Of a stretch of DNA of 64,000 bases, positions 16,300-61,944 are shown piece after piece. Position 1 is the first letter of the stretch, and each line of letters begins with the position of its first letter. The notes under the pieces were generated by a model. It made no database searches and had not been told where the DNA came from. It worked only from the letters and a program-made list of their open reading frames with translations. Made by a program: the position numbers and the translations under genes. This DNA is from Mitsuaria sp. GD03876 (GTDB lineage Bacteria; Pseudomonadota; Gammaproteobacteria; Burkholderiales; Burkholderiaceae_C). Location: assembly GCF_029840635.1 (NCBI RefSeq), contig NZ_JAOCCU010000024.1, positions 29,659-93,658 of the forward strand, written 5' to 3'.

Positions 16300-16315
16300 G
16301 GCAAATCGCGTGCCG
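16300..16315 (-). promoter_or_regulatory. Sigma-54 promoter of PRC-barrel gene
   Basis: CGGCACGCGATTTGCC on the minus strand: GG and GC separated by exactly 10 bases; predicted start near 16289. Confidence 0.75.
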
Positions 16316-16331
16316 AAGCGCAGTTCGCCCC

Positions 16332-16347
16332 GGGAATTTCCCTTGCC
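16332..16347 (+). promoter_or_regulatory. Sigma-54 promoter of second yihY gene
   Basis: GGGAATTTCCCTTGCC, GG-N10-GC spacing; good -12 element, -24 element GGAA rather than GGCA. Divergent from the PRC-barrel promoter 16 bases away. Confidence 0.6.
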
Positions 16348-16407
16348 TGGACAACGGAATCCGCTTCAGCCTCCGACGGCCGCGACACGCCTCGCGGCCC
16401 ACCGCGC

Positions 16408-17322
16408 ATGCCCAAGCTGCCCCCCGCCGTCCACGAAGCCGTCGAGATCGTCAGCGAGGCCGCGCAGGGCTGGAGCGACGACAACGCCCCCAGCATGGGC
16501 GCCGCGCTCGCGTACTACACGCTGTTCTCGATCGCGCCGCTGTTGCTGATCGTGATCAGCGTCGCCGGCATCGTCTTCGGCGAGCAGGCCGCCCGCGGCG
16601 AGGTCATGGACCAACTCTCCGACCTGATCGGCGTGCAGGGCGCCATGGCCGTCGAGGACCTGCTCAAGCGCGTCAACCGGCCGGAGGAGGGCGGCTGGGC
16701 CGCGGTCATCGGCACCGTCGTGCTGCTGGTCGGCGCGACCTCGGTGTTCGCGGAACTGCAGAACGCCCTCAACCGGATCTGGAAGGCGCCCACCCTGCGC
16801 GAAGGCCCCGTCTGGCGCGGCGTGCTCACGCTGCTGCGCAAGCGGCTGCTGTCGCTCGGCCTGATCCTCGGCCTGGGGTTCCTGTCGATGGTGTCGATGG
16901 TCGCCAGCGCCGCGCTCGCCGCGATCAGCAAGTGGTGGACGCCATGGCTGGGATCGGAGTTCGTGCTGCTGGCGCAGATCCTCAACGCGACGCTCGCCTA
17001 CGCGCTGATCACCGTGATGTTCGCCGTCATCTACAAGTGGGTGCCCGATGTCCCGGTCCGCTGGCGCGACGTCTGGGTCGGCGCGCTGATCACGTCCGCG
17101 CTGTTCAGCCTGGGCAAGGCGCTGATCGGGCTGTACATCGGCCGCAGCGGCGTCAGTTCCGCCTACGGCGCGGCCGCGTCGCTGGTGGTCATGATGCTGT
17201 GGGTCTATTACTCGACCCAGGTGTTCCTGATGGGCGCCGAACTCAGCTGGGCCTTCGCCAAGCGCCACAGCCTGCGGGAGCAGGCCGCGGCCACCGCCAC
17301 GCGAACACTGCGCGAGGGCTGA
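16408..17322 (+). CDS. YihY/UPF0761 family membrane protein (second copy type)
   Basis: 304 residues with the complete six-helix YihY core: NAPSMGAALAYYTLFSIAPLLLIVISVAG, a 90s-region helix with VFAELQNALNRIWKAP, and YGAAASLVVMMLWVYYSTQVFLMGAELSWAFA. It lacks the soluble C-terminal extension of the 6905-8170 protein and belongs to the YhjD/BrkB-like subgroup. Preceded by a -24/-12 promoter shared back-to-back with the PRC-barrel gene, which suggests stress induction. Confidence 0.87.
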   Translation: MPKLPPAVHEAVEIVSEAAQGWSDDNAPSMGAALAYYTLFSIAPLLLIVISVAGIVFGEQAARGEVMDQLSDLIGVQGAMAVEDLLKRVNRPEEGGWAAVIGTVVLLVGATSVFAELQNALNRIWKAPTLREGPVWRGVLTLLRKRLLSLGLILGLGFLSMVSMVASAALAAISKWWTPWLGSEFVLLAQILNATLAYALITVMFAVIYKWVPDVPVRWRDVWVGALITSALFSLGKALIGLYIGRSGVSSAYGAAASLVVMMLWVYYSTQVFLMGAELSWAFAKRHSLREQAAATATRTLREG

Positions 17323-17375
17323 TCGACGACAGGCCCGATGAACAGGGATATCCCGGCGATCAGGCGTGCGGTGGA

Positions 17376-17391
17376 AGGCATGGTGCTTGCC
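17376..17391 (+). promoter_or_regulatory. Sigma-54 promoter of glycine-rich protein gene
   Basis: AGGCATGGTGCTTGCC, exact GG-N10-GC spacing, strong -24 (GGCATG) and -12 (TTGC). Confidence 0.78.
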
Positions 17392-17462: not shown

Positions 17463-18626
17463 ATGAACCAGTATGGGCAACGAGGACGACAGGACCAGCG
17501 TCAAGAGAGCCAATGGGATCAGAGCGACCGCGATCGCCCGAACTACGGCGCGCAGTCTGGCAGCTACCGGTCGCAGGATCGCTCGCGCGACGGGGACCAG
17601 GCGGCCTACCAGGGCTCGAGCTTCCAGGCCGATCGCGACGAGCAGCGCGGCAGCGGCTATGGCGGCTACGGCGGCGGGCGCGAGTCCCGCGACGAGTACC
17701 GCCAGGACTACCGCGGCCACGGCGACCTGCAGAGCCAGGGCGGTTATCGCGGCGGTTATGAGAACGAAGGCTGGGGCGGCGACCGCGGTCGCTCGATGAG
17801 CGGCAACTACGGCGGCGGCAGCCAGGGCGGCTCCGGCGGTTACGGCGGCTACAGCGGCTCCGGCAACTACGGCAGCAGCAGCTACGGCGCGTCCAGCGGC
17901 TATGGCCAGGGCAGTTCCGGCGGCGGCGGCTACCGCGACCAGGGGCCGCGCCAGGAAGGCTGGCGCGAGGACGCCGGCCGCCGCGGCGACTACGGCGGCA
18001 TGGCCGGCGGCAGCGCCAGCAGCAGCTACGGCAGCACGCTGGGCGAGCACTACGGCGGCAGCCAGGGCTGGCACGGCGGTTCGCATGAAGGCCGCGGCTA
18101 CCAGGGCGGCAGCTATCAAGGCGGCGGCTACGGCGGCGGCCCGGGCGATACCTATCGAGGCGGGCAGGGCGGCTACCAAGGCAGCTCGCAAGGCGGTTCG
18201 CAGGCCCAACACCACCACGACCCCGACTACCAGCAGTGGCGCGCCGAGCAGATGCGCAACCTCGACGACGACTATCACAGCTGGCGCCAGGACCGGTACC
18301 AGAAGTTCTCCGACGACTTCAACAAGTGGCGCACGGAGCGCTCGTCGCGCCAGGGATCGAGCAGCGGCACCGGCGGCGCGGCCGGAACGCTGGGCGCGTC
18401 GTCCGGCACGTCCTCCAGCCAGTACGCCGGGCAGCAGGACACGTCCGACTCGACGCGCTACGGCCAGGGCGGCAACTCCCTGGGCAGCGGCACCGGCACG
18501 CACGAGGGCAGCCTGTCCACGTCGACCGGCTCGTCGAGCCTGTCCAGCGGCTCCACCGGCACCACGCCGAACGCGTCCGGCACGTCCTCGGGCTCGTCCG
18601 GCTCGTCGTCCGGCAAGACCAAGTGA
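17463..18626 (+). CDS. Glycine/serine-rich repeat protein with WRxE core
   Basis: 387 residues, cytoplasmic by lack of signal peptide. About residues 60-255 are Gly-Tyr-Ser-Gln repeats of GGYGG/GGSYQGG type. A short conserved charged core follows (DYQQWRAEQMRNLDDDYHSW, then RQDRYQKFSDDFNKWRTER), then a Ser/Thr/Gly-rich tail. Only the core looks folded; it recurs in Burkholderiales proteins of unknown function. Low complexity of this type could form condensates or coat structures, but nothing here proves that. It is the first gene after a strong -24/-12 promoter. Confidence 0.82.
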   Translation: MNQYGQRGRQDQRQESQWDQSDRDRPNYGAQSGSYRSQDRSRDGDQAAYQGSSFQADRDEQRGSGYGGYGGGRESRDEYRQDYRGHGDLQSQGGYRGGYENEGWGGDRGRSMSGNYGGGSQGGSGGYGGYSGSGNYGSSSYGASSGYGQGSSGGGGYRDQGPRQEGWREDAGRRGDYGGMAGGSASSSYGSTLGEHYGGSQGWHGGSHEGRGYQGGSYQGGGYGGGPGDTYRGGQGGYQGSSQGGSQAQHHHDPDYQQWRAEQMRNLDDDYHSWRQDRYQKFSDDFNKWRTERSSRQGSSSGTGGAAGTLGASSGTSSSQYAGQQDTSDSTRYGQGGNSLGSGTGTHEGSLSTSTGSSSLSSGSTGTTPNASGTSSGSSGSSSGKTK

Positions 18627-18719: not shown

Positions 18720-18735
18720 CGGCATGCCGCTTGCC
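18720..18735 (+). promoter_or_regulatory. Sigma-54 promoter of GT9 gene
   Basis: CGGCATGCCGCTTGCC, exact spacing. Predicted start is ~18746, one base before the ATG. Confidence 0.72.
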
Positions 18736-18746: not shown

Positions 18747-19808
18747 ATGATCGCGACGTCCCTCGAACAGCGCGCCCGCCCGCCGAGTCCTCCGGGACCC
18801 GACGAGGCGGGCGTGCCCGTGTTCGAGGGCCCGGCGCCGCTCGACGCCCGCCTGCTCGCCGAGGAGCGCCATCGCCGCTGGTGCAACGTGCGCCGCGTGC
18901 TGCTGGTGCGGCTGGACGGGGTGGCGGGCGTGCTGGCCTCGACGGCCGCGTTCGCGGCCTTGCACGAAACCATGCCCTGGACCCATCGCACGCTGCTGGC
19001 GGCGCCCGAGGCGCTGGTGCTGCGGCCGCACCTGCAGTCGGTGGACGACGTGATGAGCTTCAACGCGCCCTGGACCGCCTCGGGCGCCGCGGCGCTCAAC
19101 GCCGAGCCGTCGACGATGCGCGGCGATGCCGAGATGCACCTGGTGCGCAAGCTGCGCCGCAGCCATTTCGACGCGGCGGTGCTGTTCTGCCCCTCCGCCC
19201 AGAGCGCCTTGCCCGCGGCGCTGCTGTGCCGCATGGCCGGCATCCCCTTGACGCTGGCGCATGTGCGCGAACCGGCGCACGGGCTGCTCAGCGACGAGGT
19301 CGCGGACGACGGCGCCGCCCACGACGACACCCGGCGCCAGCTGGACCTGGTCGACCACATCGGCATGCAAACCGCCGACGAGCGGCCGCGGCTGCGGCTG
19401 CTGCCCAAGGACAGCCACCAGATGCGGAACGCCTTGCAGCAAGCGGGGCTGGGCTTCGGTCAGCGCTACGTGCTGGTGTGCCCGGGCGGCGGCGGCGCGC
19501 GGCACTGCCCGGCCGCGGCCTTCGCGGCGGCGGCGGACGTGCTGCTGGACGCCTGGGCCGACGACACCGCGGTCGTGCTCTGCGCGCGGCCGGGCGACGA
19601 GGCGGCGCTGGCGGAACTCCGGGCCGCGATGCCGGCGCGGGGCCAGGTCTTGCCGCCGGTGGCGTCGATCGGCGAGCTCGCGGCGCTGATGGCGAGCGCG
19701 CGCGTGCTGATCGCCGTCGACGACCTGCCGCTGACCATCGCCGCGGCCACGCGCGTGCCGGCGGTGCTGCCCGGCGAGGCGCTGCGCCGAGAGCGGCTCC
19801 TGGGCTGA
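18747..19808 (+). CDS. Glycosyltransferase family 9 (heptosyltransferase-like) protein
   Basis: 353 residues. After a ~45-residue N-terminal extension, RRVLLVRLDGVAGVLAS starts the GT-B N-terminal Rossmann domain, and YVLVCPGGGGARHCPAAAFAAA with VASIGELAALMASARVLIAVDD forms the nucleotide-sugar half. GT9 enzymes add heptose to lipopolysaccharide core, but the canonical acceptor-side residues are not clear here and no LPS genes are adjacent, so another acceptor is possible. The ATG lies at the predicted +2 of the -24/-12 promoter; a GTG at 18813 is an alternative start. Confidence 0.78.
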   Translation: MIATSLEQRARPPSPPGPDEAGVPVFEGPAPLDARLLAEERHRRWCNVRRVLLVRLDGVAGVLASTAAFAALHETMPWTHRTLLAAPEALVLRPHLQSVDDVMSFNAPWTASGAAALNAEPSTMRGDAEMHLVRKLRRSHFDAAVLFCPSAQSALPAALLCRMAGIPLTLAHVREPAHGLLSDEVADDGAAHDDTRRQLDLVDHIGMQTADERPRLRLLPKDSHQMRNALQQAGLGFGQRYVLVCPGGGGARHCPAAAFAAAADVLLDAWADDTAVVLCARPGDEAALAELRAAMPARGQVLPPVASIGELAALMASARVLIAVDDLPLTIAAATRVPAVLPGEALRRERLLG

Positions 19809-19864: not shown

Positions 19865-19880
19865 GGGCACGGTGCTTGCC
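19865..19880 (+). promoter_or_regulatory. Sigma-54 promoter of small exported protein gene
   Basis: GGGCACGGTGCTTGCC, exact spacing, near-consensus in both elements; leader of about 100 bases. Confidence 0.78.
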
Positions 19881-20644: not shown

Positions 20645-22102
<1,458 letters not shown>

Positions 22103-22184: not shown

Positions 22185-22200
22185 TGGCATGCCGCCTGCC
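22185..22200 (+). promoter_or_regulatory. Sigma-54 promoter of topoisomerase IB gene
   Basis: TGGCATGCCGCCTGCC, exact GG-N10-GC; -12 is CTGC instead of TTGC. Predicted start ~22211, just before the ribosome-binding site. Confidence 0.62.
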
Positions 22201-22223
22201 TCGGGAGAGGCAGGAGGATGTGT

Positions 22224-24040: not shown

Positions 24041-24583
24041 TCAGCGCATCCAGCCGTAGTCGGTCTGGCGCGGCGCCAGCGACTGCTTGTGCCGGGCCAT
24101 CATCCCGGGCTCTCGTCGCGTGCCTTCGGTGGCGGGGTCGATCACGACACCGCCGGACGGGGCCGCCGTCTCGATCGCGCCGGCCGAGCGAGCGGCAGGC
24201 AGATGCGCCAGCCTGGGCGGCGGCAGCAGTTCGGCCAGGCGGTCCAGGGTCTTGCGCACGTCCAGCGGCTTGGCCCACAGCTCGAGGAAGCCGCAGCCGA
24301 TCGCATCGAAGTCGGAATCGGCCGTCACCGCGATCGCCGGCACCTGCGCCCAGCCGCGCCGCATGCGCAGCAGCTTCAGCAGGTCGGAGCCGTGGCAATC
24401 GGGCAGGTTGAGGTCCACCAGCAGCAGCGACGGCTGCAGCTTCGCGCTCAGGCGCCAGGCCGGCATGCCGGCTTCGGCGACATGCAGGCGCAGGTCGCGA
24501 CGCTGTTCGAACATTGCCTCCATCACGATGACGTTGAGGGGGCTGTCTTCGATGTACAGCACCGAGCTGAGGCCGTCATTCAT
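24041..24583 (-). CDS. Single-domain response regulator with C-terminal tail
   Basis: 180 residues from ATG 24583 with GGAAGGAG upstream. Receiver fold with SVLYIEDSPLNVIVMEAMFE, phospho-acceptor in LLLVDLNLPDCHGSDLL, and WAKPLD; a ~50-residue disordered tail follows. No output domain, so it acts by protein contact, as in CheY-like or phosphorelay shuttles. A strong -24/-12 promoter precedes it, suggesting it is itself part of the stress response, possibly as a feedback element. Confidence 0.87.
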   Translation of the reverse strand: MNDGLSSVLYIEDSPLNVIVMEAMFEQRRDLRLHVAEAGMPAWRLSAKLQPSLLLVDLNLPDCHGSDLLKLLRMRRGWAQVPAIAVTADSDFDAIGCGFLELWAKPLDVRKTLDRLAELLPPPRLAHLPAARSAGAIETAAPSGGVVIDPATEGTRREPGMMARHKQSLAPRQTDYGWMR

Positions 24584-24625: not shown

Positions 24626-24641
24626 GGCAATCGCCGTGCCC
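24626..24641 (-). promoter_or_regulatory. Sigma-54 promoter of response regulator gene
   Basis: GGGCACGGCGATTGCC on the minus strand, near-consensus; predicted start ~24615. Confidence 0.8.
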
Positions 24642-24788: not shown

Positions 24789-24804
24789 GGGTATGAGGCT
24801 TGCC
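24789..24804 (+). promoter_or_regulatory. Sigma-54 promoter of 24845 gene
   Basis: GGGTATGAGGCTTGCC, exact spacing. Confidence 0.7.
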
Positions 24805-25536: not shown

Positions 25537-25552
25537 GGGAACGCTCCTTGCC
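25537..25552 (+). promoter_or_regulatory. Sigma-54 promoter of DUF883 operon
   Basis: GGGAACGCTCCTTGCC, exact GG-N10-GC, good -12. Confidence 0.65.
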
Positions 25553-25607: not shown

Positions 25608-25979
25608 ATGAGCACCACTCCCAACAACGAGAAGAGCGACAAGACTGTGCCGTTCACGACGTCCGAGGACGCTGCCAAGGCTTCGAACGGTGCGGGCGCC
25701 GCGCCGTCGAGCACCGCCGCGGTCGACATGGTGAATCGCGTGGCCGACAAGGCGCACGCGACGATCGATCGGCTGGCGACGTCGGCGGCCCCGGCGGCGC
25801 AGCATTTGCAGAAGAGCCTGGAGGATACGAACGATCTGCTGCACGAGCGTGCCGAGCGTTTGCGCACGACGGGCAACGAGTGGTGTGACAGTTTGCGCGA
25901 CAACGTGCGCGAGCATCCGCTGATGGCGGTGGGCACGGCGCTGGCGGTTGGCATGCTGATCGCGCGGCTGACGCGTTGA
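25608..25979 (+). CDS. DUF883 (YqjD/ElaB-like) membrane-anchored protein
   Basis: 123 residues: disordered N-terminus, amphipathic helix (VADKAHATIDRLATSA, LHERAERLRTTGNEW) and C-terminal hydrophobic segment HPLMAVGTALAVGMLIARL. The architecture matches YqjD/ElaB, which anchor in the inner membrane and bind ribosomes in stationary phase in E. coli. First gene of a yqjD-yqjE-yqjK-like operon, 13 bases before the next start, behind a -24/-12 promoter. Confidence 0.82.
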   Translation: MSTTPNNEKSDKTVPFTTSEDAAKASNGAGAAPSSTAAVDMVNRVADKAHATIDRLATSAAPAAQHLQKSLEDTNDLLHERAERLRTTGNEWCDSLRDNVREHPLMAVGTALAVGMLIARLTR

Positions 25980-27584: not shown

Positions 27585-27600
27585 AGCAAGTCACGTACCC
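27585..27600 (-). promoter_or_regulatory. Sigma-54 promoter of DUF2383 gene
   Basis: GGGTACGTGACTTGCT on the minus strand, exact spacing, overlapping the last codons of the hybrid kinase gene. Confidence 0.72.
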
Positions 27601-29957
27601 GTGGGCAGCCCCATCGCGCGCCGCAGCGCCTCCAGGATCTGCGACGGCGACGCCGGCTTGCGCAGCACGATGAACGAGGACTCGGCCGTCAGCGCCTCGC
27701 TGAAGCCGCTGATCAGCACGATCGGCAGCCCGGCGCGGCGCGTGCGCAGCTCGCGGGCCAGCGCCTGGCCGTCCATCGAGCCCGGCATCACCACGTCCGA
27801 CAACACCACGTCCACCGCCGCGCCGCTGCCGAACAGCTGCAGCGCCTCGTCCGCGTCCTTGGCCGACAGCACCTGGCAGGAGAAGCTGCGCAGCAGGCTG
27901 GCGGTGACGCGGTTGAGTTCCTCGTTGTCCTCCACCAGCAGCACCCGCGCGCCGGCCAGGCTGTTGGCGCGCGCGTCCTCGCGCGGCTGGTCGGGCCGGG
28001 CGCGCACCGGCGCGCTGGCCTGCGACGGCAGCAGCAGCGTCACCGTCGTGCCCGCGCCGAGCTGGCTGGCGATGCGCGCCGTGCCGCCGGCCTGCACGCA
28101 GAAGCCCATCACCTGGCTCAGCCCCAGGCCGGTGCCCTTGCCGACCTGCTTGGTGGTGAAGAAGGGCTCGAAGACGCGTCCCAGGATGTCGTCCGGGATG
28201 CCCGGGCCGCGGTCGGTGAAGGTGATGGCCACGTACTCGCCGGGCGCCAGGTCCTGCACGTCGCCCGGCGACGCGCGGCCGGCCTCGAGCGTGATCTCGC
28301 CCATGCCGTTGGTCGCGTCGCGCGCGTTCAGCGCGATGTTGATCAGCGCGAGCTCCAGCTCCGACGGATCGACCCGCACGCTGGGCAGGTCCGGCGCCAT
28401 CGTCGTCGTCAGCTGCATCCGCTTGCCCAGCACCGTGGCCAGCAGCTCGTTCATCTCGCCCAGCGTCGAGCGCAGGTCGATCACCTGCGGATGCACCGGC
28501 TGGCGTCCCGACACGCGCAGCAGATGCTGCGTCAACCGGCTGCCGACATCGACCGACCGCATGATCGCGCCCAGCGGCATCGCCATCGACTCGGCATGCG
28601 GGCTGCGCTGGATCAGGTGCGCGCTGTTGCTGATCACGCCCAGCAGGTTGTTGAAGTCGTGCGCGACGCCGCCGGTCAGCCGGCCCAGCGCGGCGATGCG
28701 CTGCGCGCGCGAGCTCAGCTGTTCCGCCTCGCGGGTGCGGTCGATCGCCTCGTTGACGCGGTCCTCCAGCTCCGAGCGCCCCTGGCGGATCGCGGCGCTG
28801 GCATCCTCGAGCGCCAGGGCCACCTCGTCGCATTCGAGCATGCCGGTCCTGGGCGCGCGCACCGGCTCGCCGGCGCGCAGCGCGTTGGCGATCTCGTTGA
28901 GCGCGTGGATCGGGCCCGAGATGCGGCGGCTGATCCACAGCGCGCCGAACATGCCCACCAGCACCAGCAGCAGCGCGCCCACGGCGATCGGCTGCAGCGC
29001 GGTGCTGCCGCCCAGGCCCGCCAGGCCTGACACCCGCGGCACCGCGGTGACCACGGTCCAGCCCTGCGGCGACTTGCTGAAGTAGCCCAGCACCGGCTTG
29101 CCGTCGAGGTTGACCGACTCGAACTGGGCCTCGTCCCGCGTCGCCATCAGCCGCTTGAGGTCGTCGGTGGCGGGGCGCCCGGCGTAGCTGATGCCGCCGG
29201 GGTGACGGGCGACGATGGTGCCGCTGCCGTCCATGATCGTCGCGGTCCAGTCGCCGGGCAGGCGCTGCGCGTCGATGATCTGCTGCAGCTCCTGCGGCAG
29301 CACGGTGATCGTCATGTTCAGCCAGACATGGCCGCCGCGCTCGATCGGCTGGACGATCTGCGCGCGCAGCTGGCCGGTGGCGCGGTCCGGGCCGAGGTCG
29401 CCGATCACCGCCTGCTCCGACAGTGGCACCGACTCGCGCACCAGCACCGGCCGCGAGGCGGCCCGCGTGGGCAGGCCCGGCGGGACGGTGGCCGCCGACG
29501 TGGCGGCGGCCGAGGCGCCGGTGGCGGGCGGGAAGGCGACGGGTGGCGCGAGCGGCGCGGCGGGAACCGCGCCCGTCGGCGGCGTGTCCGCCACCCGCCC
29601 GGCGGCAAGCCGCGTGCTGAACAGCGTCCGGTCCGGCGCGGCCAGCTCGACCCAGCCGGCCAGTCCCTGCATCGCGCGGCGCGACTGCAGTTCCAGCATC
29701 GCCAGGTCGTCGGCCGGGATCTGCGGCGAGCTGTCCAGGATCTGCGACAGCGACAGCACCCGCGCGATGTTGGCCCGGCGCGCCAGTTCCTTGTCCACCA
29801 CCATCGACAGCGCGCGCGTGCTGTCGCGCATGTGGCGCACGGTGGCTTCCTGCTCGTCGCTCCAGGTCTGCCAACTGACCCACAGCGCCGCGATGATGCC
29901 GGGCAGCATCACGGACAGGACGAGCACGAGCAGGCGGGAACGGATCGGCAGGGGCAT
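27591..29957 (-). CDS. Hybrid sensor histidine kinase with C-terminal receiver
   Basis: 788 residues from ATG 29957; a TTG at 30059 would add a basic, unlikely extension before the first membrane helix. Membrane helix at the N-terminus, periplasmic Cache-like sensor (to ~330) with a Pro/Ala insertion, second helix (ALLLVLVGMFGALWI), HAMP, HisKA with His433 in GGVAHDFNNLLG, HATPase (NARDA, DRGPGIP, GTGLGLSQV) and a receiver (VLSDVVMPG). The internal receiver implies a phosphorelay through an Hpt protein not seen here. It follows the AI-2E-type exporter gene and may share its promoter. Confidence 0.9.
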   Translation of the reverse strand: MPLPIRSRLLVLVLSVMLPGIIAALWVSWQTWSDEQEATVRHMRDSTRALSMVVDKELARRANIARVLSLSQILDSSPQIPADDLAMLELQSRRAMQGLAGWVELAAPDRTLFSTRLAAGRVADTPPTGAVPAAPLAPPVAFPPATGASAAATSAATVPPGLPTRAASRPVLVRESVPLSEQAVIGDLGPDRATGQLRAQIVQPIERGGHVWLNMTITVLPQELQQIIDAQRLPGDWTATIMDGSGTIVARHPGGISYAGRPATDDLKRLMATRDEAQFESVNLDGKPVLGYFSKSPQGWTVVTAVPRVSGLAGLGGSTALQPIAVGALLLVLVGMFGALWISRRISGPIHALNEIANALRAGEPVRAPRTGMLECDEVALALEDASAAIRQGRSELEDRVNEAIDRTREAEQLSSRAQRIAALGRLTGGVAHDFNNLLGVISNSAHLIQRSPHAESMAMPLGAIMRSVDVGSRLTQHLLRVSGRQPVHPQVIDLRSTLGEMNELLATVLGKRMQLTTTMAPDLPSVRVDPSELELALINIALNARDATNGMGEITLEAGRASPGDVQDLAPGEYVAITFTDRGPGIPDDILGRVFEPFFTTKQVGKGTGLGLSQVMGFCVQAGGTARIASQLGAGTTVTLLLPSQASAPVRARPDQPREDARANSLAGARVLLVEDNEELNRVTASLLRSFSCQVLSAKDADEALQLFGSGAAVDVVLSDVVMPGSMDGQALARELRTRRAGLPIVLISGFSEALTAESSFIVLRKPASPSQILEALRRAMGLPTGT

Positions 29958-31260: not shown

Positions 31261-31736
31261 GATGGTAAGGATGACGAAATGCGAGGGCGGTCACTGCGGC
31301 GAAGCAAGGGACGGGCCAACCGCGTTGGCGACGTGGGTACAGGGGGTTACCTCGGGCCTGTCTTGCGTGGGTTGGCGATGCACCGCCCAACTGCTCGACG
31401 CCAAGCGCGGACCCTCCACGAGGCATGGGGGATCCCTCCTGGACCCCCAAGCCTCATTCCGGTCCCAGTAGCGCCCGCGGCCTTCGCTTTCTTCTTGGCG
31501 GGGGGAGCGAGGGGCCTCGCATCGGTAAAGGATGCCGAAAGCCTTGCCTGGGAAGGGCCGGGGGACGGCATGGCGCGTCCGCGATGCGGACGGACGGCGG
31601 GCGGGCTGAGGAGGAGACGGGGTCAGGCCTCGCCGTCGACGATTCCCCGGCAGGCCCCGTGCCCAGTGGGTTTGCGGCGATCGGGCAGGCACGCCGGATG
31701 ACGCGGTCTTCGCGATGTGAAACCTCGAAGCGGCGA
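31261..31736. other. Non-coding region between AI-2E transporter and rpoN
   Basis: No reading frame here looks like a real protein. The segment holds a hairpin GGGGGATCC-CTCCT-GGACCCCC (31427-31448), a GTCCGC/GCGGAC stem near 31577-31592 and the transporter promoter. A structured leader or small RNA is possible but unsupported. Confidence 0.4.
31303..31318 (-). promoter_or_regulatory. Sigma-54 promoter of AI-2E transporter gene
   Basis: TGGCCCGTCCCTTGCT on the minus strand, exact GG-N10-GC; consensus T first and W last. Predicted start ~31292. Confidence 0.65.
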
Positions 31737-31752
31737 TGGCATGGTCCTTGCG
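31737..31752 (+). promoter_or_regulatory. Sigma-54 promoter upstream of rpoN itself
   Basis: TGGCATGGTCCTTGCG, one of the best matches in the window; predicted start ~31763, leader ~110 bases. Confidence 0.78.
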
Positions 31753-31873: not shown

Positions 31874-33286
31874 GTGGGAGCAATGGAACTCAGGCACGAG
31901 CACAAGCAGACGCAGACGCTGTCGCCTCGCCTCCAGCACGCCGTGCGGCTGCTGCAGATGTCGTCGCTGGACTTCTCCACGATGGTCACCGACATGCTGG
32001 GGCGCAATCCCTTCCTGGAGGTCACCGAAGGCTCGGACGACGCGCTGCCGCTGGACGCGGACGTGCCGGTCGCGCCGGGACCGGTGATGTCCGACGCTCC
32101 GGAGCCGCTGCCCGACGACCGCGAGATCTGGCGCGCCGAGAGCTCCGGATCGATGCGCCGCGCCGAGGACGGCGAGCTCAGCGCGCTGGAGATGACCGCC
32201 GCGCAGACCTGCCTGCGCGAACACCTGCGCAGCCAGCTCAACGTGCTGCGCCTGTCCCCGCGCGACCTGGTGCTGGCGACGATCGTGGCCGAGTCGGTCG
32301 ACGACGACGGCTACCTGCGCAGCTCGCTCGAGGAACTCGCGGCGGTCGCCCAGATGCAGCCGCCGGTGGCGATCGAGGAGATGCAAATCGCGCTCAAGCG
32401 CGTGCAGGCGCTCGATCCGCTGGGCGTCGGGGCGCGCAGCGTCGCCGAATGCCTGCTGCTGCAGCTGCCCAAGATCGAGGACGCCCGCAGCCGGACGCTG
32501 GCCGAGCGGATCATCACGCAACACCTGAACCTGCTGGCCTCGCGCGACGTGCCGGCGCTGGCGCAGCTGCTGGACGTGAGCGTGGCCGAGGCCGAATCCG
32601 TCTGCCTGAAGCTGCGCCGCTTCGACCCCCGCCCGGGCTGGCGCTACGAGACCACGCAGGCCGCGTACATCGTGCCGGACGTGCTGACGACCAAGGTGCG
32701 CGGCCAGTGGCGCGTGCAGCTCAATCCGGCCGTGATCCCGAAGGTGCGGATGAACCAGGTCTACGCCGAGCTGTTCCAGCGTCACCGCCAGCAGGGCCAT
32801 GCCGAGATGGCCAACCACCTGCAGGAAGCCCGCTGGACGATGCGCAACATCGAGCAGCGCTTCTCCACCATCCTGGACGTGGCCAACGCGATCGTGCGCC
32901 GCCAGCGGCACTTCCTGGAATTCGGCGCGATGGCGATGAAGCCGCTGGGCCTCAAGGAGATCGCCGACGAGGTCGGCATCCACGAGTCGACGGTCTCGCG
33001 CGTGACCAACAACAAGTACCTGGCGACGCCGACTGGCGTGTACGAGCTGAAGTACTTCTTCTCCCGCGCGATCGTCAGCAGCAACGGCAGCGCCTGCTCG
33101 GGCACCGCGATCCGCGGGCTGATCAAGGACATCATCGAGGCCGAGCGCGCGGACAACCCGCTGTCCGACGCCGAGATCACCCGCCAGCTCGCCCGCCAGG
33201 GCCTGGTGGTGGCGCGGCGCACGGTGACCAAGTACCGCCAGATGCTGCGCATCGACGCCGTCGAGCGCCGCCGCCAGCACAGCTGA
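31874..33286 (+). CDS. rpoN: RNA polymerase sigma-54 factor, probable second paralogue
   Basis: 470 residues from GTG 31874, chosen because AGGAG lies 8 bases upstream; the ATG at 31883 has only a 2-base gap to a GGGAG. Region I (LSPRLQHAVRLLQMSSLDFS), core-binding domain, HTH (LKEIADEVGIHESTVSRVTN) and the RpoN box ARRTVTKYRQ near residues 447-456 are all present. Region I opens with ELRHEHKQTQ rather than the common LxLKLSQxLxLTPQLQ, and the usual downstream genes of the main rpoN locus (hpf, ptsN) are absent, so I read it as a second, specialised RpoN. It is preceded by a -24/-12 promoter, i.e. likely autoregulated. Confidence 0.92.
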   Translation: MGAMELRHEHKQTQTLSPRLQHAVRLLQMSSLDFSTMVTDMLGRNPFLEVTEGSDDALPLDADVPVAPGPVMSDAPEPLPDDREIWRAESSGSMRRAEDGELSALEMTAAQTCLREHLRSQLNVLRLSPRDLVLATIVAESVDDDGYLRSSLEELAAVAQMQPPVAIEEMQIALKRVQALDPLGVGARSVAECLLLQLPKIEDARSRTLAERIITQHLNLLASRDVPALAQLLDVSVAEAESVCLKLRRFDPRPGWRYETTQAAYIVPDVLTTKVRGQWRVQLNPAVIPKVRMNQVYAELFQRHRQQGHAEMANHLQEARWTMRNIEQRFSTILDVANAIVRRQRHFLEFGAMAMKPLGLKEIADEVGIHESTVSRVTNNKYLATPTGVYELKYFFSRAIVSSNGSACSGTAIRGLIKDIIEAERADNPLSDAEITRQLARQGLVVARRTVTKYRQMLRIDAVERRRQHS

Positions 33287-34737: not shown

Positions 34738-34753
34738 CGGAACGGCGCTTGCC
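34738..34753 (+). promoter_or_regulatory. Sigma-54 promoter of mechanosensitive channel gene
   Basis: CGGAACGGCGCTTGCC, exact spacing; predicted start ~34764, one base before the ATG. Confidence 0.68.
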
Positions 34754-40474: not shown

Positions 40475-40490
40475 GGCAATCGCCGTGCCG
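40475..40490 (-). promoter_or_regulatory. Sigma-54 promoter of the otsAB operon
   Basis: CGGCACGGCGATTGCC on the minus strand, near-consensus; identical over 15 of 16 bases to the 24626-24641 promoter. Confidence 0.8.
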
Positions 40491-40734: not shown

Positions 40735-40750
40735 TGCAAGCGGCGCGCCC
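40735..40750 (-). promoter_or_regulatory. Sigma-54 promoter of proline-rich protein gene
   Basis: GGGCGCGCCGCTTGCA on the minus strand, exact spacing and consensus W at the end. Confidence 0.65.
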
Positions 40751-41879: not shown

Positions 41880-41895
41880 CGGCACCCGGATTGCC
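41880..41895 (+). promoter_or_regulatory. Sigma-54 promoter of the hemerythrin operon
   Basis: CGGCACCCGGATTGCC, exact spacing, GGCAC -24 and TTGC -12; predicted start ~41906, before AAGGAG. Confidence 0.75.
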
Positions 41896-47375: not shown

Positions 47376-47391
47376 GGCAATCGCGATGCCA
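47376..47391 (-). promoter_or_regulatory. Sigma-54 promoter of katE
   Basis: TGGCATCGCGATTGCC on the minus strand; near-consensus, predicted start ~47365. Confidence 0.8.
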
Positions 47392-47396: not shown

Positions 47397-47412
47397 CGGC
47401 ATGCGGGTTGCC
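47397..47412 (+). promoter_or_regulatory. Sigma-54 promoter of small basic protein gene
   Basis: CGGCATGCGGGTTGCC, exact spacing; its -24 GG lies 7 bases from that of the katE promoter, back-to-back. Confidence 0.75.
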
Positions 47413-49221: not shown

Positions 49222-49237
49222 AGCAAGCGGGGTGCCT
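49222..49237 (-). promoter_or_regulatory. Sigma-54 promoter of sorbosone dehydrogenase-family gene
   Basis: AGGCACCCCGCTTGCT on the minus strand, exact spacing, near-consensus. Confidence 0.75.
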
Positions 49238-50157: not shown

Positions 50158-50173
50158 CGGCACCCCGCTTGCC
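50158..50173 (+). promoter_or_regulatory. Sigma-54 promoter of TonB-dependent receptor gene
   Basis: CGGCACCCCGCTTGCC, exact spacing, near-consensus; nearly identical to the 49222-49237 promoter. Confidence 0.75.
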
Positions 50174-58063: not shown

Positions 58064-59007
58064 GCGTCGGGCACCTCCGTCATCGGCGCGCGGCCGTCCG
58101 CGGGCACGGACGACGGCGCGTCGGGCAGCCGCAGCGGCAGCGTCAGCGAGAAGACCGAGCCCACGCCGGGCTCGCTGCGCAGGCCGACGCGGCCGCCGAG
58201 CAGCTCCGCCAGGCGCTTGCTCAGCGACAGGCCCAGCCCGGTCCCTCGCAGCCGCTTCTGGATCGGCGAGCCGATCTGGGTGAAGTCCTGGAAGATCGCG
58301 CCGTGGAACTCGGGCGCGATGCCGATGCCGGTGTCGCTGACGGCGAAGGTGATCTCGGGCTGGCCGCCGCCGTCAGCGCCGTCGCCCACCACCGCGCTGA
58401 CCCGCACCTCGCCCTGGGTCGTGAACTTGAGCGCGTTGGAGATGAAGTTGCGCAGGATCTGCGACAGCTTGGCGTCGTCGGTGAACAGCTGCGAGACGCC
58501 TTGCGGCTCCTCGAAGATCAGCTGCACGTCCGGGTTGACCAGCACCGGCTTGAACATGCCGCGCAACGCGGCGAACAGGTCCAGCAGCTCGAACCAGGCT
58601 GGGGAGATGTCGATGCGCCCGGCCTCGACCTTGGCCAGGTCGAGCAGGTCGTTGACCATGTCGGCGAATTCCTCCGAGGTGCGCTGGATGAAGGTGATCT
58701 GCTTGTCCTGCTCCTCGGTCAGCGGCCCGTCGACGCGGTCCAGCAGCAGCCGGGTGAGGCTGCGGATGGACGAGATCGGCGTGCGGAACTCGTGGCTCAT
58801 GTAGGCCAGGAAGCGGCTCTTGAGCTCGGTCGCCTGGCGCAGCTGCTGGGCCTGCGTGTCCAGCTCGGCGTACAGCGCGAGCACGCCGCGGTTGGTCTCG
58901 TCGATCTCGGTCTGCAAGGCCTCGACCTGCGCGCGCGACGCGGCCAGCGCGGCGCGCAGCGCGTCGGCGTCCGGCCCGGCGGCGGTCGTGTCGTCCATCG
59001 GCGTCAT
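58060..59007 (-). CDS. Soluble histidine kinase of the stressosome operon
   Basis: 315 residues from ATG 59007. N-terminal coiled coil (~15-65), HisKA with His72 (YMSHEFRTPISSIRSL), HATPase with NFISNALKF, DTGIGIAPEF and GTGLGLSLSKRL. No sensor domain, so its input is probably a protein, plausibly RsbT or the SpoIIE protein encoded just upstream. Four-base overlaps on both sides. Confidence 0.92.
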   Translation of the reverse strand: MTPMDDTTAAGPDADALRAALAASRAQVEALQTEIDETNRGVLALYAELDTQAQQLRQATELKSRFLAYMSHEFRTPISSIRSLTRLLLDRVDGPLTEEQDKQITFIQRTSEEFADMVNDLLDLAKVEAGRIDISPAWFELLDLFAALRGMFKPVLVNPDVQLIFEEPQGVSQLFTDDAKLSQILRNFISNALKFTTQGEVRVSAVVGDGADGGGQPEITFAVSDTGIGIAPEFHGAIFQDFTQIGSPIQKRLRGTGLGLSLSKRLAELLGGRVGLRSEPGVGSVFSLTLPLRLPDAPSSVPADGRAPMTEVPDA

Positions 59008-60065
59008 CCTCGTTCCCCCGGGCCCTCGTGCCGGCGCACGACCACCACGGTCGCGTCGTCGCGGCCGCGCAGGTGGTCCCGGACGATCCATCCGGCGATC
59101 ACCGCCGGGTCGGCCCGCAGCAGGCCGGGCGTGTCTTCCAACGACCAGCGGCTGACGATGCCGTCCGAATGCAGCACCAGCACCGCATGGGGCGGCCACT
59201 CGTAGACCGCGTCCTGCAAGCGCCGTACCTGCAGCCCGAGCGTGCCGTGCTGCGACATCAGCGAGCGGTCGGCGACGCCGGAGATCAGCCGGCCGGCGAT
59301 GTTGCCGGCCCCGCCGAACAGCAGCTGCGTGCCGTCCTCGGCCAGCGCGACGGCCGCGGCCGCGCAGCCGCGGGTGCTGCGCAGCGGATCGTGCGCGCGT
59401 TCGAGGAACGCGGCCGGGGAGCTCAGCGCGCCCGGCGCCGCCTGACCGAGCAGCAGCATGAGCTTGTCGGCCGCCGCGGCGGCGTCGGGGCCGTGGCCCA
59501 GCCCGTCGGCCATCGCCAGCGTCCCGCGCGCGCCGTCGCGGCGCCAGGCCCAGGCGTCGCCGCTGACCGATTCGCCGGGCGCGGCCAGCGACAGGCCGGC
59601 GACGTCGAAGGCGGGGGCGCGCACCGGCATGTGCGAGCGCTCGACCCGAGGCGCGAAACGCGCCGCGATGACCGTGCCGCGGCCTGGCGCCGAGAACGCG
59701 CCGAAGCGCGACGCCTGGCGGCTGATCGCGCCCAGGCCGGTGCCGGACGAACCGGCGGTGCTGTAGCCGTCGCGCAGGCAGCGTTCGACGTCCATGCCGT
59801 CGCCCCGGTCCAGCGACAGCACCTGCACGGCGTCGCCGTCCCGGCCGGGCTCGCCGCCGGTCTCGTCGCGACCGATCAGCAGCGCGGCCTCGCGGCCGGG
59901 TCCGACGTGGCGGAAGAGGTTGGTGCCCAGCTCGGTCACCGCCAGCGCGAGCCGGCCGGCGGCTTCCTCGTCGAAGGCCAGTTCCGCCGCCAGCGCCAGC
60001 GCCGCGCGGCGGGCCTCGCCGACCTGGCTGGCGTCGTCGACGGGAATGCGTCGATGCGCGCGCAC
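59004..60065 (-). CDS. ATPase-SpoIIE (PP2C) phosphatase of the stressosome
   Basis: 353 residues from GTG 60065, directly after the rsbT stop, with GGAAG upstream. N-terminal GHKL-type ATPase domain (LALAVTELGTNLFRHV, GTGLGAISRQASRF) fused to a SpoIIE/PP2C phosphatase (GDAWAWRRDGARGTLAMADG, LGHGPDAAAAADKL, DDATVVVVRR). It plays the RsbX-like role of removing phosphates from RsbR/RsbS and so resetting the stressosome; the fused ATPase domain may contact RsbT. Confidence 0.9.
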   Translation of the reverse strand: MRAHRRIPVDDASQVGEARRAALALAAELAFDEEAAGRLALAVTELGTNLFRHVGPGREAALLIGRDETGGEPGRDGDAVQVLSLDRGDGMDVERCLRDGYSTAGSSGTGLGAISRQASRFGAFSAPGRGTVIAARFAPRVERSHMPVRAPAFDVAGLSLAAPGESVSGDAWAWRRDGARGTLAMADGLGHGPDAAAAADKLMLLLGQAAPGALSSPAAFLERAHDPLRSTRGCAAAAVALAEDGTQLLFGGAGNIAGRLISGVADRSLMSQHGTLGLQVRRLQDAVYEWPPHAVLVLHSDGIVSRWSLEDTPGLLRADPAVIAGWIVRDHLRGRDDATVVVVRRHEGPGERG

Positions 60066-60067
60066 GG

Positions 60068-60475
60068 CTACTTCCAGCGCGTGATCGTCACGCGCGTGCC
60101 GCGTCCGGGCGCGGAGTCGATCTCGAAATCGTTGACCAGCCGCTTGCTGCCCGACAGGCCCATGCCCATCCCGTTGCCCGAGGTCCACCCGTCCTTCATC
60201 GCCAGCTCCATGTCCGGGATGCCCGGTCCCTGGTCGACGAAGGCAAGCCGCAGGCCCGTGCGCAGCCCGGCGGTCACGATCGCCCATTCCATGGTCCCGC
60301 CGCCGCCATAGACGACGGTGTTGCGCGACAGCTCGCTGGCCGCGGTGATCATCTTGGTCTGGTCCACCAGCGAGAACTTCAGCTCCTGCGTCAGCCGGCG
60401 CACCAGCTGGCGCGCCAGCACGATGTCGGGCTCGGCCTGCACCGGCATCGCGCCGGCGGTCTCAGCGGCCGGCAC
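60068..60475 (-). CDS. rsbT: RsbT-like switch kinase
   Basis: 135 residues. GHKL kinase with ITAASELSRNTVVYGGGG (N box), FVDQGPGIPDMELAM and GNGMGMGLSGSKRLVNDF. RsbT phosphorylates RsbS and RsbR and is released on stress to activate a downstream partner; here the partner is probably a kinase or phosphatase in the same operon, as no RsbU/sigma-B is present. Confidence 0.93.
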   Translation of the reverse strand: MPAAETAGAMPVQAEPDIVLARQLVRRLTQELKFSLVDQTKMITAASELSRNTVVYGGGGTMEWAIVTAGLRTGLRLAFVDQGPGIPDMELAMKDGWTSGNGMGMGLSGSKRLVNDFEIDSAPGRGTRVTITRWK

Positions 60476-60896
60476 GCGGGGGCTCCTCGCCGGCGCCGTC
60501 GGCCTCGCCGGACGGCTCTTCGGCGTCGGCCTCCGACGCGACGCCAGCCTCGCGCAGCAGCGCCATGCCGCGTTCCACGTCCAGCGCGGTGCGCACGCCG
60601 TGCAGCGACAGGCCCAGCTCCACCAGCGTGATCGCCACCGCCGGCTGCATGCCGACGACGACCGAGGTCGCGCCCAGCACCCGGGCGATGCTGGAGATGC
60701 CGGCCAGCATGCGGCCGATGAAGGAGTCCACGATCTCCAGCGCGGAGATGTCGATCAGCACGCCGGTCGCGCCGGTGTCCTGGATGCGGTTGGCCAGGTC
60801 GTCCTGCAGCGCCAGCGCGGTCTGGTCCTGCAGGTCGACCTGGATGGTCACCAGCAGCGTCCGGCCCATGCGCAGGATGGGGATGCGCGTGGTCAT
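60462..60896 (-). CDS. rsbS: RsbS-like STAS protein
   Basis: 144 residues. A single STAS domain with GVLIDISALEIVDSFIGRML, where Ser58 corresponds to the RsbT-phosphorylated serine of Bacillus RsbS. A ~25-residue acidic tail is extra. Core scaffold of the stressosome. Overlaps rsbT by 14 bases. Confidence 0.93.
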   Translation of the reverse strand: MTTRIPILRMGRTLLVTIQVDLQDQTALALQDDLANRIQDTGATGVLIDISALEIVDSFIGRMLAGISSIARVLGATSVVVGMQPAVAITLVELGLSLHGVRTALDVERGMALLREAGVASEADAEEPSGEADGAGEEPPRAGR

Positions 60897-61768
60897 GCGG
60901 CGGTACCCGCGCCGGCCGCGGGCCGGCCCTTGGTGACGACGAACCCGGCGCGCTTCATCGCCAGCGCCAGCGCGTCCGCCAGGGTCGCCTTGGTCGTGAT
61001 GCCTTCCAGGTCGATGCCCAGGTGCACGATGGTCTGCGCGATCTGCGGACGGATGCCGCTGATGATCGCGTCCGCGCCCATCAGCCGGATCGCCGTGACA
61101 GTCTTGATCAGGTGCTGCGCCACCAGCGTGTCGACGGTGGGCACGCCGGTGATGTCGATGATCGCCAGCCCGGAACCGGTCTCGACGATGCGCTGCAGCA
61201 GCGTCTCCATCACCAGCTGCGTGCGGCCGCTGTCCAGCGTGCCGATCATCGGCACCGCCAGCACGCCTTCCCACAACTTGACCACCGGCGTGGACAGCTC
61301 CAGCAGCTCCTGCTGCTGGCGCGCGATGATCTCCTCGCGGCTGCGCTGGTAGGTGGTGACGGTGTACTGCGCCATGTTGTCCAGCAGGGAGGAGATCTCC
61401 CAGGTGGCGTCCACCAGCGCCGCGGGCTGGTCGCCGAAGCGGCGCTGCAGGCCGGCGAACATCGGCTTCTTCAGCGCCAGCACGAAGCGGCTGGTGTCGG
61501 CGGCCGTCGAGCCCTGCGCCGCGCGCGAGCGCGACAGGCTGCCCAGCACTTCGCGCACATGGGCCCAGGGCGCGTCGTCGAAGTTCTCGGTGTTGCCGTT
61601 GGCGCGCACGCCGGCCAGGATGGCCTCCAGCAGCTCGCCGGTCTCGCGCAGTTCGCTGGTCAGGCTGCGGTTGCCGCCGCCGGCCGTCAGTTCGGCCTGC
61701 CACTCGGCAAGCACCCGGTCGCGTTGCGCGGACAGGAGGTCTTCGACGGCGGCGCTGTTCTGTTTCAT
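60893..61768 (-). CDS. rsbR: RsbR-like stressosome sensor
   Basis: 291 residues. N-terminal helical sensor domain (~1-155, non-heme-globin-like turret, VREVLGSLSRSRAAQGSTAA) and C-terminal STAS with IIDITGVPTVDTLVAQHLI (Thr214) and GIRPQIAQTIVHLG (Thr246), the two RsbT target threonines. It forms the mixed RsbR-RsbS particle. First gene of the operon; no -24/-12 promoter is seen before it, so the sensor may be made constitutively. Confidence 0.93.
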   Translation of the reverse strand: MKQNSAAVEDLLSAQRDRVLAEWQAELTAGGGNRSLTSELRETGELLEAILAGVRANGNTENFDDAPWAHVREVLGSLSRSRAAQGSTAADTSRFVLALKKPMFAGLQRRFGDQPAALVDATWEISSLLDNMAQYTVTTYQRSREEIIARQQQELLELSTPVVKLWEGVLAVPMIGTLDSGRTQLVMETLLQRIVETGSGLAIIDITGVPTVDTLVAQHLIKTVTAIRLMGADAIISGIRPQIAQTIVHLGIDLEGITTKATLADALALAMKRAGFVVTKGRPAAGAGTAA

Positions 61769-61928
61769 GGGTTCCTCTCGGGCGCGGGGAGGGCGGGGCG
61801 CCTCGGATTCAGCAAGGGGGAAAAGGGCCGCGACGGACCTCGCGGCGGGCGCGATCCTAACGTCGCCACAGCGTACGGCAGCGCTTCCCTGGGCGAGGAT
61901 CAGGGGCGGGTAAGTCCCGAGCCAGGGC

Positions 61929-61944
61929 GGGCACGCCGGTTGCC
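61929..61944 (+). promoter_or_regulatory. Sigma-54 promoter of the divergent REC-kinase gene
   Basis: GGGCACGCCGGTTGCC, exact spacing, near-consensus; predicted start ~61955. Confidence 0.75.

What the first reader, a model, noticed from the sequence alone, without database searches (positions are those of the whole stretch)
16300..61944. A dense sigma-54 regulon covering a stress-protection gene island
Twenty-three sequences with GG and GC exactly 10 bases apart, mostly NGGCAYGNNNNTTGCC, lie just upstream of and point toward: PRC-barrel, YihY, glycine-rich protein, GT9, exported protein, topoisomerase IB, response regulator, the 24845 protein, DUF883 operon, DUF2383, AI-2E exporter, rpoN, a disordered protein, MscS, the otsAB operon, Pro-rich protein, SDR, hemerythrin operon, katE, DUF6496-like, sorbosone dehydrogenase, TonB receptor and a REC-kinase. 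Ordinary genes in the first 15 kb lack them. In most bacteria such genes are under RpoS, sigma-B or EcfG; control by RpoN would be an unusual general stress response. First base is usually C/G and last base C, a variant of the classical TGGCACGNNNNTTGCW.
Basis: partly seen in the sequence, partly recalled or inferred. Interest (0 to 1): 0.95.

Follow-up and report, generated by a model that had tools for sequence, protein, structure and literature searches.

The report
Second sigma-54 runs stress-gene island
A Roseateles-like bacterium carries a second, altered copy of the gene-switching factor sigma-54 among twenty predicted promoter sites, most before stress-protection genes and most sharing one extra letter, and this copy with its partner activator likely drives them, a job usually left to quite different factors.

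Summary
The sites are real. GGCAYG-N4-TTGC occurs 62 times in the 6.36-Mb genome; 9 lie in this island (0.7% of it), all intergenic and pointing at genes. Eleven more have one mismatch. A 430-kb sample of the same genome has 0 exact sites.

The island's rpoN is a second, diverged copy (RpoN2): its own clade (100/100), an altered RpoN box (ARRTVTKYRQ; ordinary ARRT[V/I]AKYR[E/D]) and a linked NtrC-type activator. In 100 genera the activator's orthologue occurs in 18 of 20 genomes with RpoN2 and 0 of 80 without.

The telling letter follows TTGC (-11). In rpoN2 loci of many genera it is C at 81 of 83 target sites and at 0 of 31 rpoN2 promoters. In four relatives without RpoN2 it is C at 1 of 22. 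In several other genera, but not clearly in this one, the rpoN2 promoter also has a TTGCNGCAA dyad that targets lack.

Model: activator and, likely, ordinary RpoN1 turn on rpoN2; RpoN2 then likely reads the -11C promoters (catalase, trehalose, MscS, hemerythrin). RpoS is also encoded. Which sigma factor reads what, and stress induction, are untested. Nine literature searches listed no such system.

The parts
31883..33286 (+). rpoN2, diverged sigma-54 paralogue (467 aa; the longer ORF start at 31736 overlaps its own promoter)
   Evidence: Pfam Sigma54 AID/CBD/DBD; second copy in genome; own clade; RpoN box ARRTVTKYRQ
31738..31751 (+). rpoN2 promoter site GGCATGGTCCTTGC followed by G (-11 is not C)
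31672..31680 (.). TTGCGGCGA, one mismatch from the TTGCNGCAA dyad found upstream of rpoN2 promoters in other genera; weak enhancer candidate, not matched in 9 of 11 near relatives
20645..22102 (+). NtrC-type sigma-54 activator (REC + AAA+ with GAFTGA + HTH_8)
27591..29957 (-). membrane hybrid histidine kinase (kinase core nearest CckA/AtoS-type models, all below their cut-offs); candidate sensor for the activator, inferred
16301..16314 (-). -24/-12 site, -11C, PRC-barrel gene 15921-16262
17377..17390 (+). site, -11C, Gln/Gly-rich protein 17463-18626
18721..18734 (+). site, -11C, GT9 gene 18819-19808
19866..19879 (+). site, -11C, small gene ahead of the activator gene
22186..22199 (+). one-mismatch site, -11C, topoisomerase IB 22218-23417; 6 of 6 orthologues have a site
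24627..24640 (-). site, -11C, receiver-domain protein 24041-24583 (HAD gene follows); exact in 10 of 10 orthologues
24790..24803 (+). one-mismatch site, -11C, protein 24845-25345; 10 of 10
25538..25551 (+). one-mismatch site, -11C, DUF883-like gene 25608-25979 (Pfam score just under cut-off); 11 of 12
27586..27599 (-). one-mismatch site, -11T, DUF2383 gene 27084-27542; 9 of 14
31304..31317 (-). one-mismatch site, -11T, AI-2E-family transporter 30040-31230; 10 of 15
34739..34752 (+). one-mismatch site, -11C, MscS 34765-35886; 11 of 12
40476..40489 (-). site, -11C, gene run 39877-40434 + GT20 (otsA) 37586-39880 + trehalose phosphatase (otsB) 36828-37589; exact in 8 of 8
40736..40749 (-). one-mismatch site, -11A, 302 bp from gene 39877-40434; probably serves a Pro-rich reading frame in between that my gene models omit
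41881..41894 (+). one-mismatch site, -11C, hemerythrin gene 42191-42754 (297 bp away)
47377..47390 (-). one-mismatch site, -11C, katE 44744-47284
47398..47411 (+). site, -11C, small protein 47450-47644
49223..49236 (-). one-mismatch site, -11T, glucose/sorbosone dehydrogenase 47738-49168
50159..50172 (+). one-mismatch site, -11C, TonB receptor 50225-52363
61930..61943 (+). site, -11C, receiver/kinase gene 61991-63088
59004..61768 (-). stressosome-type genes RsbR, RsbS, RsbT and a HATPase+SpoIIE protein; no site of up to two mismatches within 300 bp upstream of rsbR; associated with the island, not core

Best explanation
The island holds a second, diverged sigma-54 gene (rpoN2), a co-inherited sigma-54 activator gene and twenty gene-directed -24/-12 sites, 15 of them with a C at -11, most of which RpoN2 with that activator likely reads as stress-gene promoters. 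The rpoN2 promoter itself has no C at -11 in any of the 31 cases seen, and in nine lineages of other genera it carries an exact TTGCNGCAA dyad at enhancer distance, so it is likely fired by the ordinary RpoN1 with an activator bound to that dyad. The result would be a two-step circuit: a membrane kinase (inferred) phosphorylates the activator; activator and RpoN1 polymerase make RpoN2; RpoN2 polymerase then transcribes the -11C promoters of catalase, trehalose synthesis, MscS, hemerythrin, DUF883-like, topoisomerase IB and further genes across the genome. Shown by calls: the sites, their direction, conservation, enrichment and -11 split, the RpoN2 clade with its altered signature residues, and co-inheritance with the activator. 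Inferred: which sigma factor reads which promoter, what the activator binds, the sensor, and the stress signal.
For: Enrichment and direction. Conservation. Separate RpoN2 clade (100/100). RpoN box ARRTVTKYRQ in 37 of 38 lineage rows (no box could be read in one) and in 18 of 18 further genomes, against ARRT[V/I]AKYR[E/D] in 68 of 68 and 11 of 11 ordinary copies. Activator orthologue (61-80% identity) in 18 of 20 RpoN2+ and 0 of 80 RpoN2- genomes, p 6e-18, on one contig with rpoN2 in 17 of the 18; two genomes have two such pairs. Exact sites: 127 in 34 rpoN2 loci (674 kb), 11 in 45 other rpoN loci (823 kb), reversed pattern 1 and 1. -11 base: C at 81 of 83 directed intergenic targets (99 of 105 with no filter), 0 of 31 rpoN2 promoters, p 7e-26; with one Roseateles only, 53 of 55 against 0 of 20. 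RpoN2- relatives 1 of 22; G196 and G144 (RpoN2+) 23 of 46; own genome 30 of 51. Exact TTGCNGCAA: 13 of 36 non-C promoters, 17 of 487 background upstreams, 2 of 93 C promoters. Outside the island, the genes after all 22 -11C sites and after 8 of 20 non-C sites were scanned: non-C include rtcB, a PEP-CTERM gene and a branched-chain transport permease; -11C include DJ-1/PfpI, YMGG glycine-zipper, baeRF12 and GFA genes.
Against: No transcript, binding or mutant data. Raw genome counts of SGGCAYGN4TTGCC are the same per Mb in RpoN2+ and RpoN2- genomes (3.01 and 2.98); searches put this down to coding DNA, but only part of the hits was resolved. Of the 20 island sites 3 have T and 1 has A at -11. 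Two -11C sites precede housekeeping-type genes (tyrosyl-tRNA synthetase, fumarylacetoacetase). G161 (two rpoN2) and G128 (a fragment) gave no activator; one search scored 15 candidates per genome. The dyad is missing, even with one mismatch, in 9 of 11 near relatives and inexact here. No dyad was found at the targets, which sits badly with an enhancer-bound activator there. Outside the rpoN2 islands the -11C excess in G196 and G144 is weaker (10 of 31, p 0.017). Exact sites within 700 bp upstream of the activator gene: 0 of 12 distant loci. Five of 45 ordinary rpoN loci also have some activator hit.
Confidence: 0.72

Rival explanations
1. The ordinary RpoN1 reads all these promoters, and the -11C marks weaker or GC-rich promoters; RpoN2 is a redundant or minor copy.
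For: The GG-N10-GC core is the same for both classes. In Bradyrhizobium DOA9 both sigma-54 proteins bound most promoters tested (PMC13207237, passages read).
Against: -11C is rare in relatives that have only RpoN1 (1 of 22) and absent at rpoN2's own promoter in the same GC-rich genomes (0 of 31). RpoN2 has clade-fixed changes in the RpoN box, DNA-binding domain and region I (odd second copies L119, L127, L131, L136 and L145 left out of that comparison).
Confidence: 0.15
2. The element is a near-symmetric operator (GGCA-N7-TGCC) for an ordinary regulator, not a sigma-54 promoter.
For: With -11C the element becomes a GGCA-N7-TGCC dyad, at 30.4 per 100 kb in the island and 1.2 per 100 kb in the genome sample.
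Against: The inner bases are asymmetric and the sites point with the genes 46 to 4 in tandem pairs. Of 100 intergenic dyads in rpoN2 loci that are not exact sigma-54 sites, 92 are one mismatch from one in one orientation or the other, and of 93 with a better orientation 71 point at a gene within 350 bp (chance expectation not computed).
Confidence: 0.06
3. The island is ruled by RpoS or by the stressosome genes at its right end, and the sigma-54 sites are a minor extra input.
For: RpoS is encoded. RsbR orthologues of 52% identity or more are commoner in RpoN2+ genomes (8 of 20 against 5 of 80, p 5e-4; with five weaker hits 8 of 20 against 10 of 80).
Against: RsbR is absent from 12 of 20 RpoN2+ genomes, and in the 7 others that have it, it lies on another contig or 571 kb away. 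No site was found upstream of rsbR. The -24/-12 element is the conserved block in the four upstream alignments made.
Confidence: 0.07

Closest known systems
RpoN1/RpoN2/RpoN3 of Cereibacter (Rhodobacter) sphaeroides with NifA, FleQ and AprX
   Same: Several sigma-54 paralogues, each with its own activator; promoter choice between RpoN1 and RpoN2 depends in part on the -11 base (PMC11999139, passages read, citing Poggio 2006, which I did not see).
   Different: That work concerns nitrogen fixation, flagella and xrpA in an alphaproteobacterium. Here the set is stress protection in Burkholderiales, the telling base is C, and the rpoN2 promoter itself stays in the other class.
RpoN2 of Ralstonia solanacearum
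   Same: A second betaproteobacterial rpoN whose expression depends on rpoN1; the authors call its role enigmatic and note second copies in many Burkholderiales (PMC4371752, passages read).
   Different: Orthology with this RpoN2 was not tested. Second copies sampled from other families (L119, L145, L127, L131, L136) fall outside this clade and have other RpoN boxes.
RpoNp of Bradyrhizobium sp. DOA9
   Same: A second sigma-54 tied to stress adaptation, with a motif shift TGG to CGG (PMC13207237, passages read).
   Different: Alphaproteobacterial megaplasmid copy; the other motif change is before the GC, not after it; no island of this kind in the passages read.
Sigma-54 control of stress genes in general
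   Same: The abstract of PMC12316311 (passages read) calls a sigma-54 role in stress responses of Pseudomonadota well established, and reports multiple rpoN copies in about 5% of organisms studied.
   Different: The passages read name no dedicated paralogue, activator and promoter class for a stress set; the word Burkholderiales does not occur in that text.
General stress responses under RpoS, SigB or EcfG
   Same: Gene content: catalase, trehalose, MscS, hemerythrin (general knowledge).
   Different: Those are sigma-70-family factors; sigma-54 needs an ATP-driven activator (general knowledge).
NCBIfam NF009118 (PRK12469 sigma-54 subfamily)
   Same: RpoN2 scores over its cut-off (490 against 396 bits).
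   Different: Not specific: the ordinary RpoN1 of this genome also passes (506 bits), and the best scorers tried were L119 and L145 (640 and 619 bits).

Membership tests
Sigma-54 (RpoN) family | AID, core-binding and DNA-binding domains with an RpoN box | tested here: met
   the box is present with two clade-fixed changes (A to T, E to Q)
Sigma-54 promoters | GG and GC ten bases apart in a GGCAYG-N4-TTGC context, upstream of genes and oriented | tested here: met
Sigma-54 promoters | Activator-binding enhancer upstream | tested here: inconclusive
   Exact dyad at 13 of 36 non-C (nearly all rpoN2) promoters in other genera, one-mismatch copy in this window, none enriched at targets (2 of 93)
NtrC-type activators of sigma-54 | REC, AAA+ with GAFTGA loop, Fis-type HTH | tested here: met
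Specialised sigma-54 paralogue (Cereibacter type) | Separate clade with its own co-inherited activator | tested here: met
Specialised sigma-54 paralogue (Cereibacter type) | Promoter class told apart at -11 | tested here: met
   (by sequence only)
Specialised sigma-54 paralogue (Cereibacter type) | Paralogue-specific transcription shown by mutants | not testable with these tools
   no expression data
General stress response regulon | Induction of many protective genes by several stresses | not testable with these tools
   only gene content supports it
General stress response regulon | Sigma-70-family stress sigma factor in charge | tested here: not met
   the only sigma gene seen in the scanned island genes is sigma-54; an RpoS gene lies elsewhere in the genome
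Ralstonia-type RpoN2 | Orthology to the R. solanacearum RpoN2 | not tested
   no Ralstonia record among the 40 of 221 plasmid rows shown; the megaplasmid was not fetched

The most novel reading that the evidence does not exclude
A sigma-54 general stress response with the enhancer moved one step up: the activator and its enhancer act only at the rpoN2 gene, read by ordinary RpoN1, and RpoN2 then fires dozens of -11C stress promoters that have no enhancer DNA. That would make sigma-54 behave like an ordinary stress sigma factor whose level sets the response.
Probability: 0.25. Interest if true: 0.93.

Novelty: new variant of a known kind. Interest (0 to 1): 0.83.

Why it matters
Second rpoN genes occur in many Burkholderiales and the role of one was called enigmatic in Ralstonia (PMC4371752, passages). 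Here one such lineage has a likely job, a partner, a target list and a one-letter promoter code that tells its targets from those of the ordinary sigma-54. It would mean that a stress regulon can be built on sigma-54, which needs ATP-driven activation, beside RpoS. It also gives a natural test of how the base at -11 sets sigma-54 specificity: two paralogues, two promoter classes and fixed RpoN-box changes in one cell.

Tried and rejected
Genome-wide count of SGGCAYGN4TTGCC as a mark of RpoN2: no difference between RpoN2+ and RpoN2- genomes. Most resolved hits of the shorter pattern in RpoN2- genomes proved to be coding (29 of 44, 17 of 28, 9 of 14), so I turned to intergenic sites.

Enhancer at the targets: dyad enumeration on 41 upstream regions put GGCA-N7-TGCC first, but most exact cases are the reverse of a neighbouring sigma-54 site. 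De novo dyads on 59 target upstreams gave nothing convincing.

Stressosome as core input: enriched, but in only 8 of 20 RpoN2+ genomes and unlinked outside this one; kept as associated only.

Symmetric operator and RpoN1-only readings: see rivals. An NCBIfam name for the lineage: NF009118 is not specific.

Literature: nine searches ran, open-licence full texts only; none listed a sigma-54 stress regulon of this kind in these genera. I read passages of four papers and only listings of the rest.

Limits and dropped rows: gene models come from my own codon-usage script, not a standard gene finder; topoisomerase IB was added by hand and the Pro-rich frame is missing. Near relatives are not independent, so one search was also counted with one Roseateles only. 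In one search, 17 intergenic sites with no gene start within 350 bp and 5 coding sites are outside the 83. In one search I resolved all 44 hits of G122, 28 of 61 of G186, 14 loci of G133 and G216 together (of 75 and 65 hits), 44 sites of G196 (74 hits) and 42 of G144 (69 hits); 9 undirected intergenic sites in the RpoN2- and 9 in the RpoN2+ genomes are outside the 22 and 46. The tree left out half of the loci L071-L115 and a partial row. The 'RpoN2+' set is the own genome, 18 with the ARRTVTKYRQ box and one fragment (G128, box not read); only 11 of the other 80 had their box read. G132 (43% activator hit) was not counted as an orthologue. I lowered the novel case from a first 0.3 to 0.25 on recheck because the dyad is not matched in 9 of 11 near relatives.


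Full report
What the window is. The window is the right end of contig C17 of a 6.36-Mb genome, 71.6% G+C in the window. RpoN2 is 97% identical over 467 residues to copies from Mitsuaria sp. PDC51 and Roseateles chitinivorans, so the host is taken as Roseateles/Mitsuaria-like.

The observation. Exact GGCAYG-N4-TTGC occurs 62 times in the genome, against 14 for the pattern read backwards. Nine are in the window, all at 16301-61943, far beyond chance for 0.7% of the genome (8e-10). My gene models put 53 of the 62 between genes and 51 of these upstream of a start on the same strand. Allowing one mismatch outside GG and GC, the island has 20 intergenic directed sites in 6.6 kb of intergenic DNA; the genome sample has 10, none exact, in 71 kb. 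At -11 the 20 sites have C (15), T (3), A (1) and, at rpoN2 itself, G.

Conservation. Upstream alignments of four genes over 8 to 12 rows show the element as the conserved block in DNA that otherwise aligns poorly, apart from coding stretches. Orthologues of ten site-bearing genes have a site of at most one mismatch in 90 of 103 cases; those of eight genes without a directed site in 4 of 61. Deviant letters tend to be kept gene by gene, such as GGTACG before the 24845 gene and GGAACG before MscS. In tandem gene pairs the -11C sites point with the genes 46 to 4.

RpoN2. The island rpoN is a second copy; the other is on C51. The tree separates the RpoN2 lineage (36 rows: Roseateles, Mitsuaria, Pelomonas, Aquabacterium, Hydrogenophaga, Variovorax, Comamonas, Delftia, Ramlibacter, Caldimonas and others) from the remaining 51 rows with 100/100 support. 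Thirty columns tell 36 RpoN2 rows from 68 ordinary rows, some without exception, including A to T and (67 of 68) E to Q in the RpoN box, FFGS to FFSR, and Q16R in region I (the odd second copies L119, L127, L131, L136 and L145 were left out). The box is ARRTVTKYRQ in 18 of 18 further genomes and canonical in 11 of 11 ordinary copies. The odd second copies from other families have yet other boxes.

The activator. Window 20645-22102 encodes REC, AAA+ with GAFTGA and HTH_8 and is 36-43% identical to the other activators of this genome. In 12 of 24 more distant rpoN2 loci its orthologue (52-69%) lies within 10 kb; 5 of 45 ordinary rpoN loci also show some activator hit. In 100 genera, 20 genomes have RpoN2 (one a fragment) and 18 of these have the activator (61-80% identity besides the own copy) against 0 of 80 others; G132 has a 43% hit not counted. 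In 17 of the 18 the two genes share a contig, at most 46 kb apart; the exception is a 620-contig assembly. G181 and G213 each have two rpoN2 genes, each with an activator nearby; G161 has two rpoN2 genes and none found. A Comamonadaceae plasmid carries the pair almost side by side, the activator 59% identical.

The -11 letter. In loci L037-L070 and the window, rpoN2 has an exact site within 260 bp in 31 of 35 cases; the base after TTGC there is G (24) or A (7). At 83 other intergenic directed sites it is C in 81; without any filter C in 99 of 105. In four RpoN2- relatives C is found at 1 of 22 intergenic directed sites; in G196 and G144 at 23 of 46 (10 of 31 outside the rpoN2 islands); in the own genome at 30 of 51 (22 of 42 outside the window). 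The earlier raw count showed no difference between the two sets of genomes; coding hits make up most of what I resolved in RpoN2- genomes. Outside the window I scanned the gene after all 22 -11C sites and after 8 of 20 non-C sites. Non-C: rtcB, PEP-CTERM, branched-chain transport permease, mdoG, HlyD, GNAT, MFS and one unknown. -11C: DJ-1/PfpI, glycine-zipper, baeRF12, GFA, KaiC-like, CRP-like, receiver and kinase genes, glucokinase, but also tyrosyl-tRNA synthetase and fumarylacetoacetase; five gave no Pfam family. That rtcB and PEP-CTERM genes are classical sigma-54 targets is recalled.

Enhancers. Upstream of rpoN2 promoters in several genera is TTGCNGCAA: exact in 13 of 36 non-C promoters (all 13 rpoN2's; 33 of the 36 are rpoN2's) against 17 of 487 upstream regions without a site and 2 of 93 C promoters. 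I count nine separate lineages among the 13. In the window's own group it is weak: one mismatch here at 31672-31680, no match of up to one mismatch in L037-L044 and L054, and only far ones in L045 and L046. No dyad is enriched at the targets. The activator gene has no exact site within 700 bp upstream in 12 of 12 distant loci; here a site at 19866 lies one gene ahead of it.

Model. See Best explanation. Each half has a precedent: in Cereibacter the -11 base helps to separate RpoN1 from RpoN2 promoters, and in Ralstonia rpoN2 expression needs rpoN1. What is new is the combination: a stress-protection set, -11C, an rpoN2 gene kept in the other promoter class, and a dyad seen only there.

Weak points. 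No expression data; homemade gene models; partial sampling; T, A and housekeeping exceptions; RpoS also encoded, so the share of each factor is open.

Noticed in passing
window 59004-61768: A stressosome-type set (RsbR, RsbS, RsbT, HATPase+SpoIIE) followed by two kinases in a betaproteobacterium; RsbR orthologues of 52% identity or more in 8 of 20 RpoN2+ and 5 of 80 RpoN2- genomes.
   Followed up: partly
window 47738-52363: A PqqU-like TonB receptor (570 bits, below the model's cut-off of 1200) lies near a glucose/sorbosone dehydrogenase, with a site upstream of each: possibly PQQ uptake for a PQQ enzyme within the stress set.
   Followed up: no
window 42794-44697: HipA-like gene with an HTH partner (toxin-antitoxin type) inside the island; no site of up to two mismatches within 300 bp of the hipA gene.
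   Followed up: no
G181, G213: Two rpoN2 genes each, each with its own nearby activator: the pair may have duplicated together.
   Followed up: no
L119, L145, L127, L131, L136: Second rpoN copies in other families of the order have their own RpoN-box changes at the same two positions (TKYRR, SKYRG, AKYRT, AKYRT, SKYRD): repeated change of sigma-54 specificity?
   Followed up: partly
window 31649-31663: GGCAGGCCCCGTGCC or a close form stands upstream of rpoN2 in the window and 11 near relatives; either a reversed weak sigma-54 site or a separate operator.
   Followed up: partly
L191, L196: -11C sites 115 and 48 bp upstream of tyrosyl-tRNA synthetase and fumarylacetoacetase genes, unexpected for a stress regulon.
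   Followed up: no
G000:C31:1-5567 (L176): An exact -11C site at the very start of contig C31 before a receiver gene, next to another NtrC-type activator.
   Followed up: no
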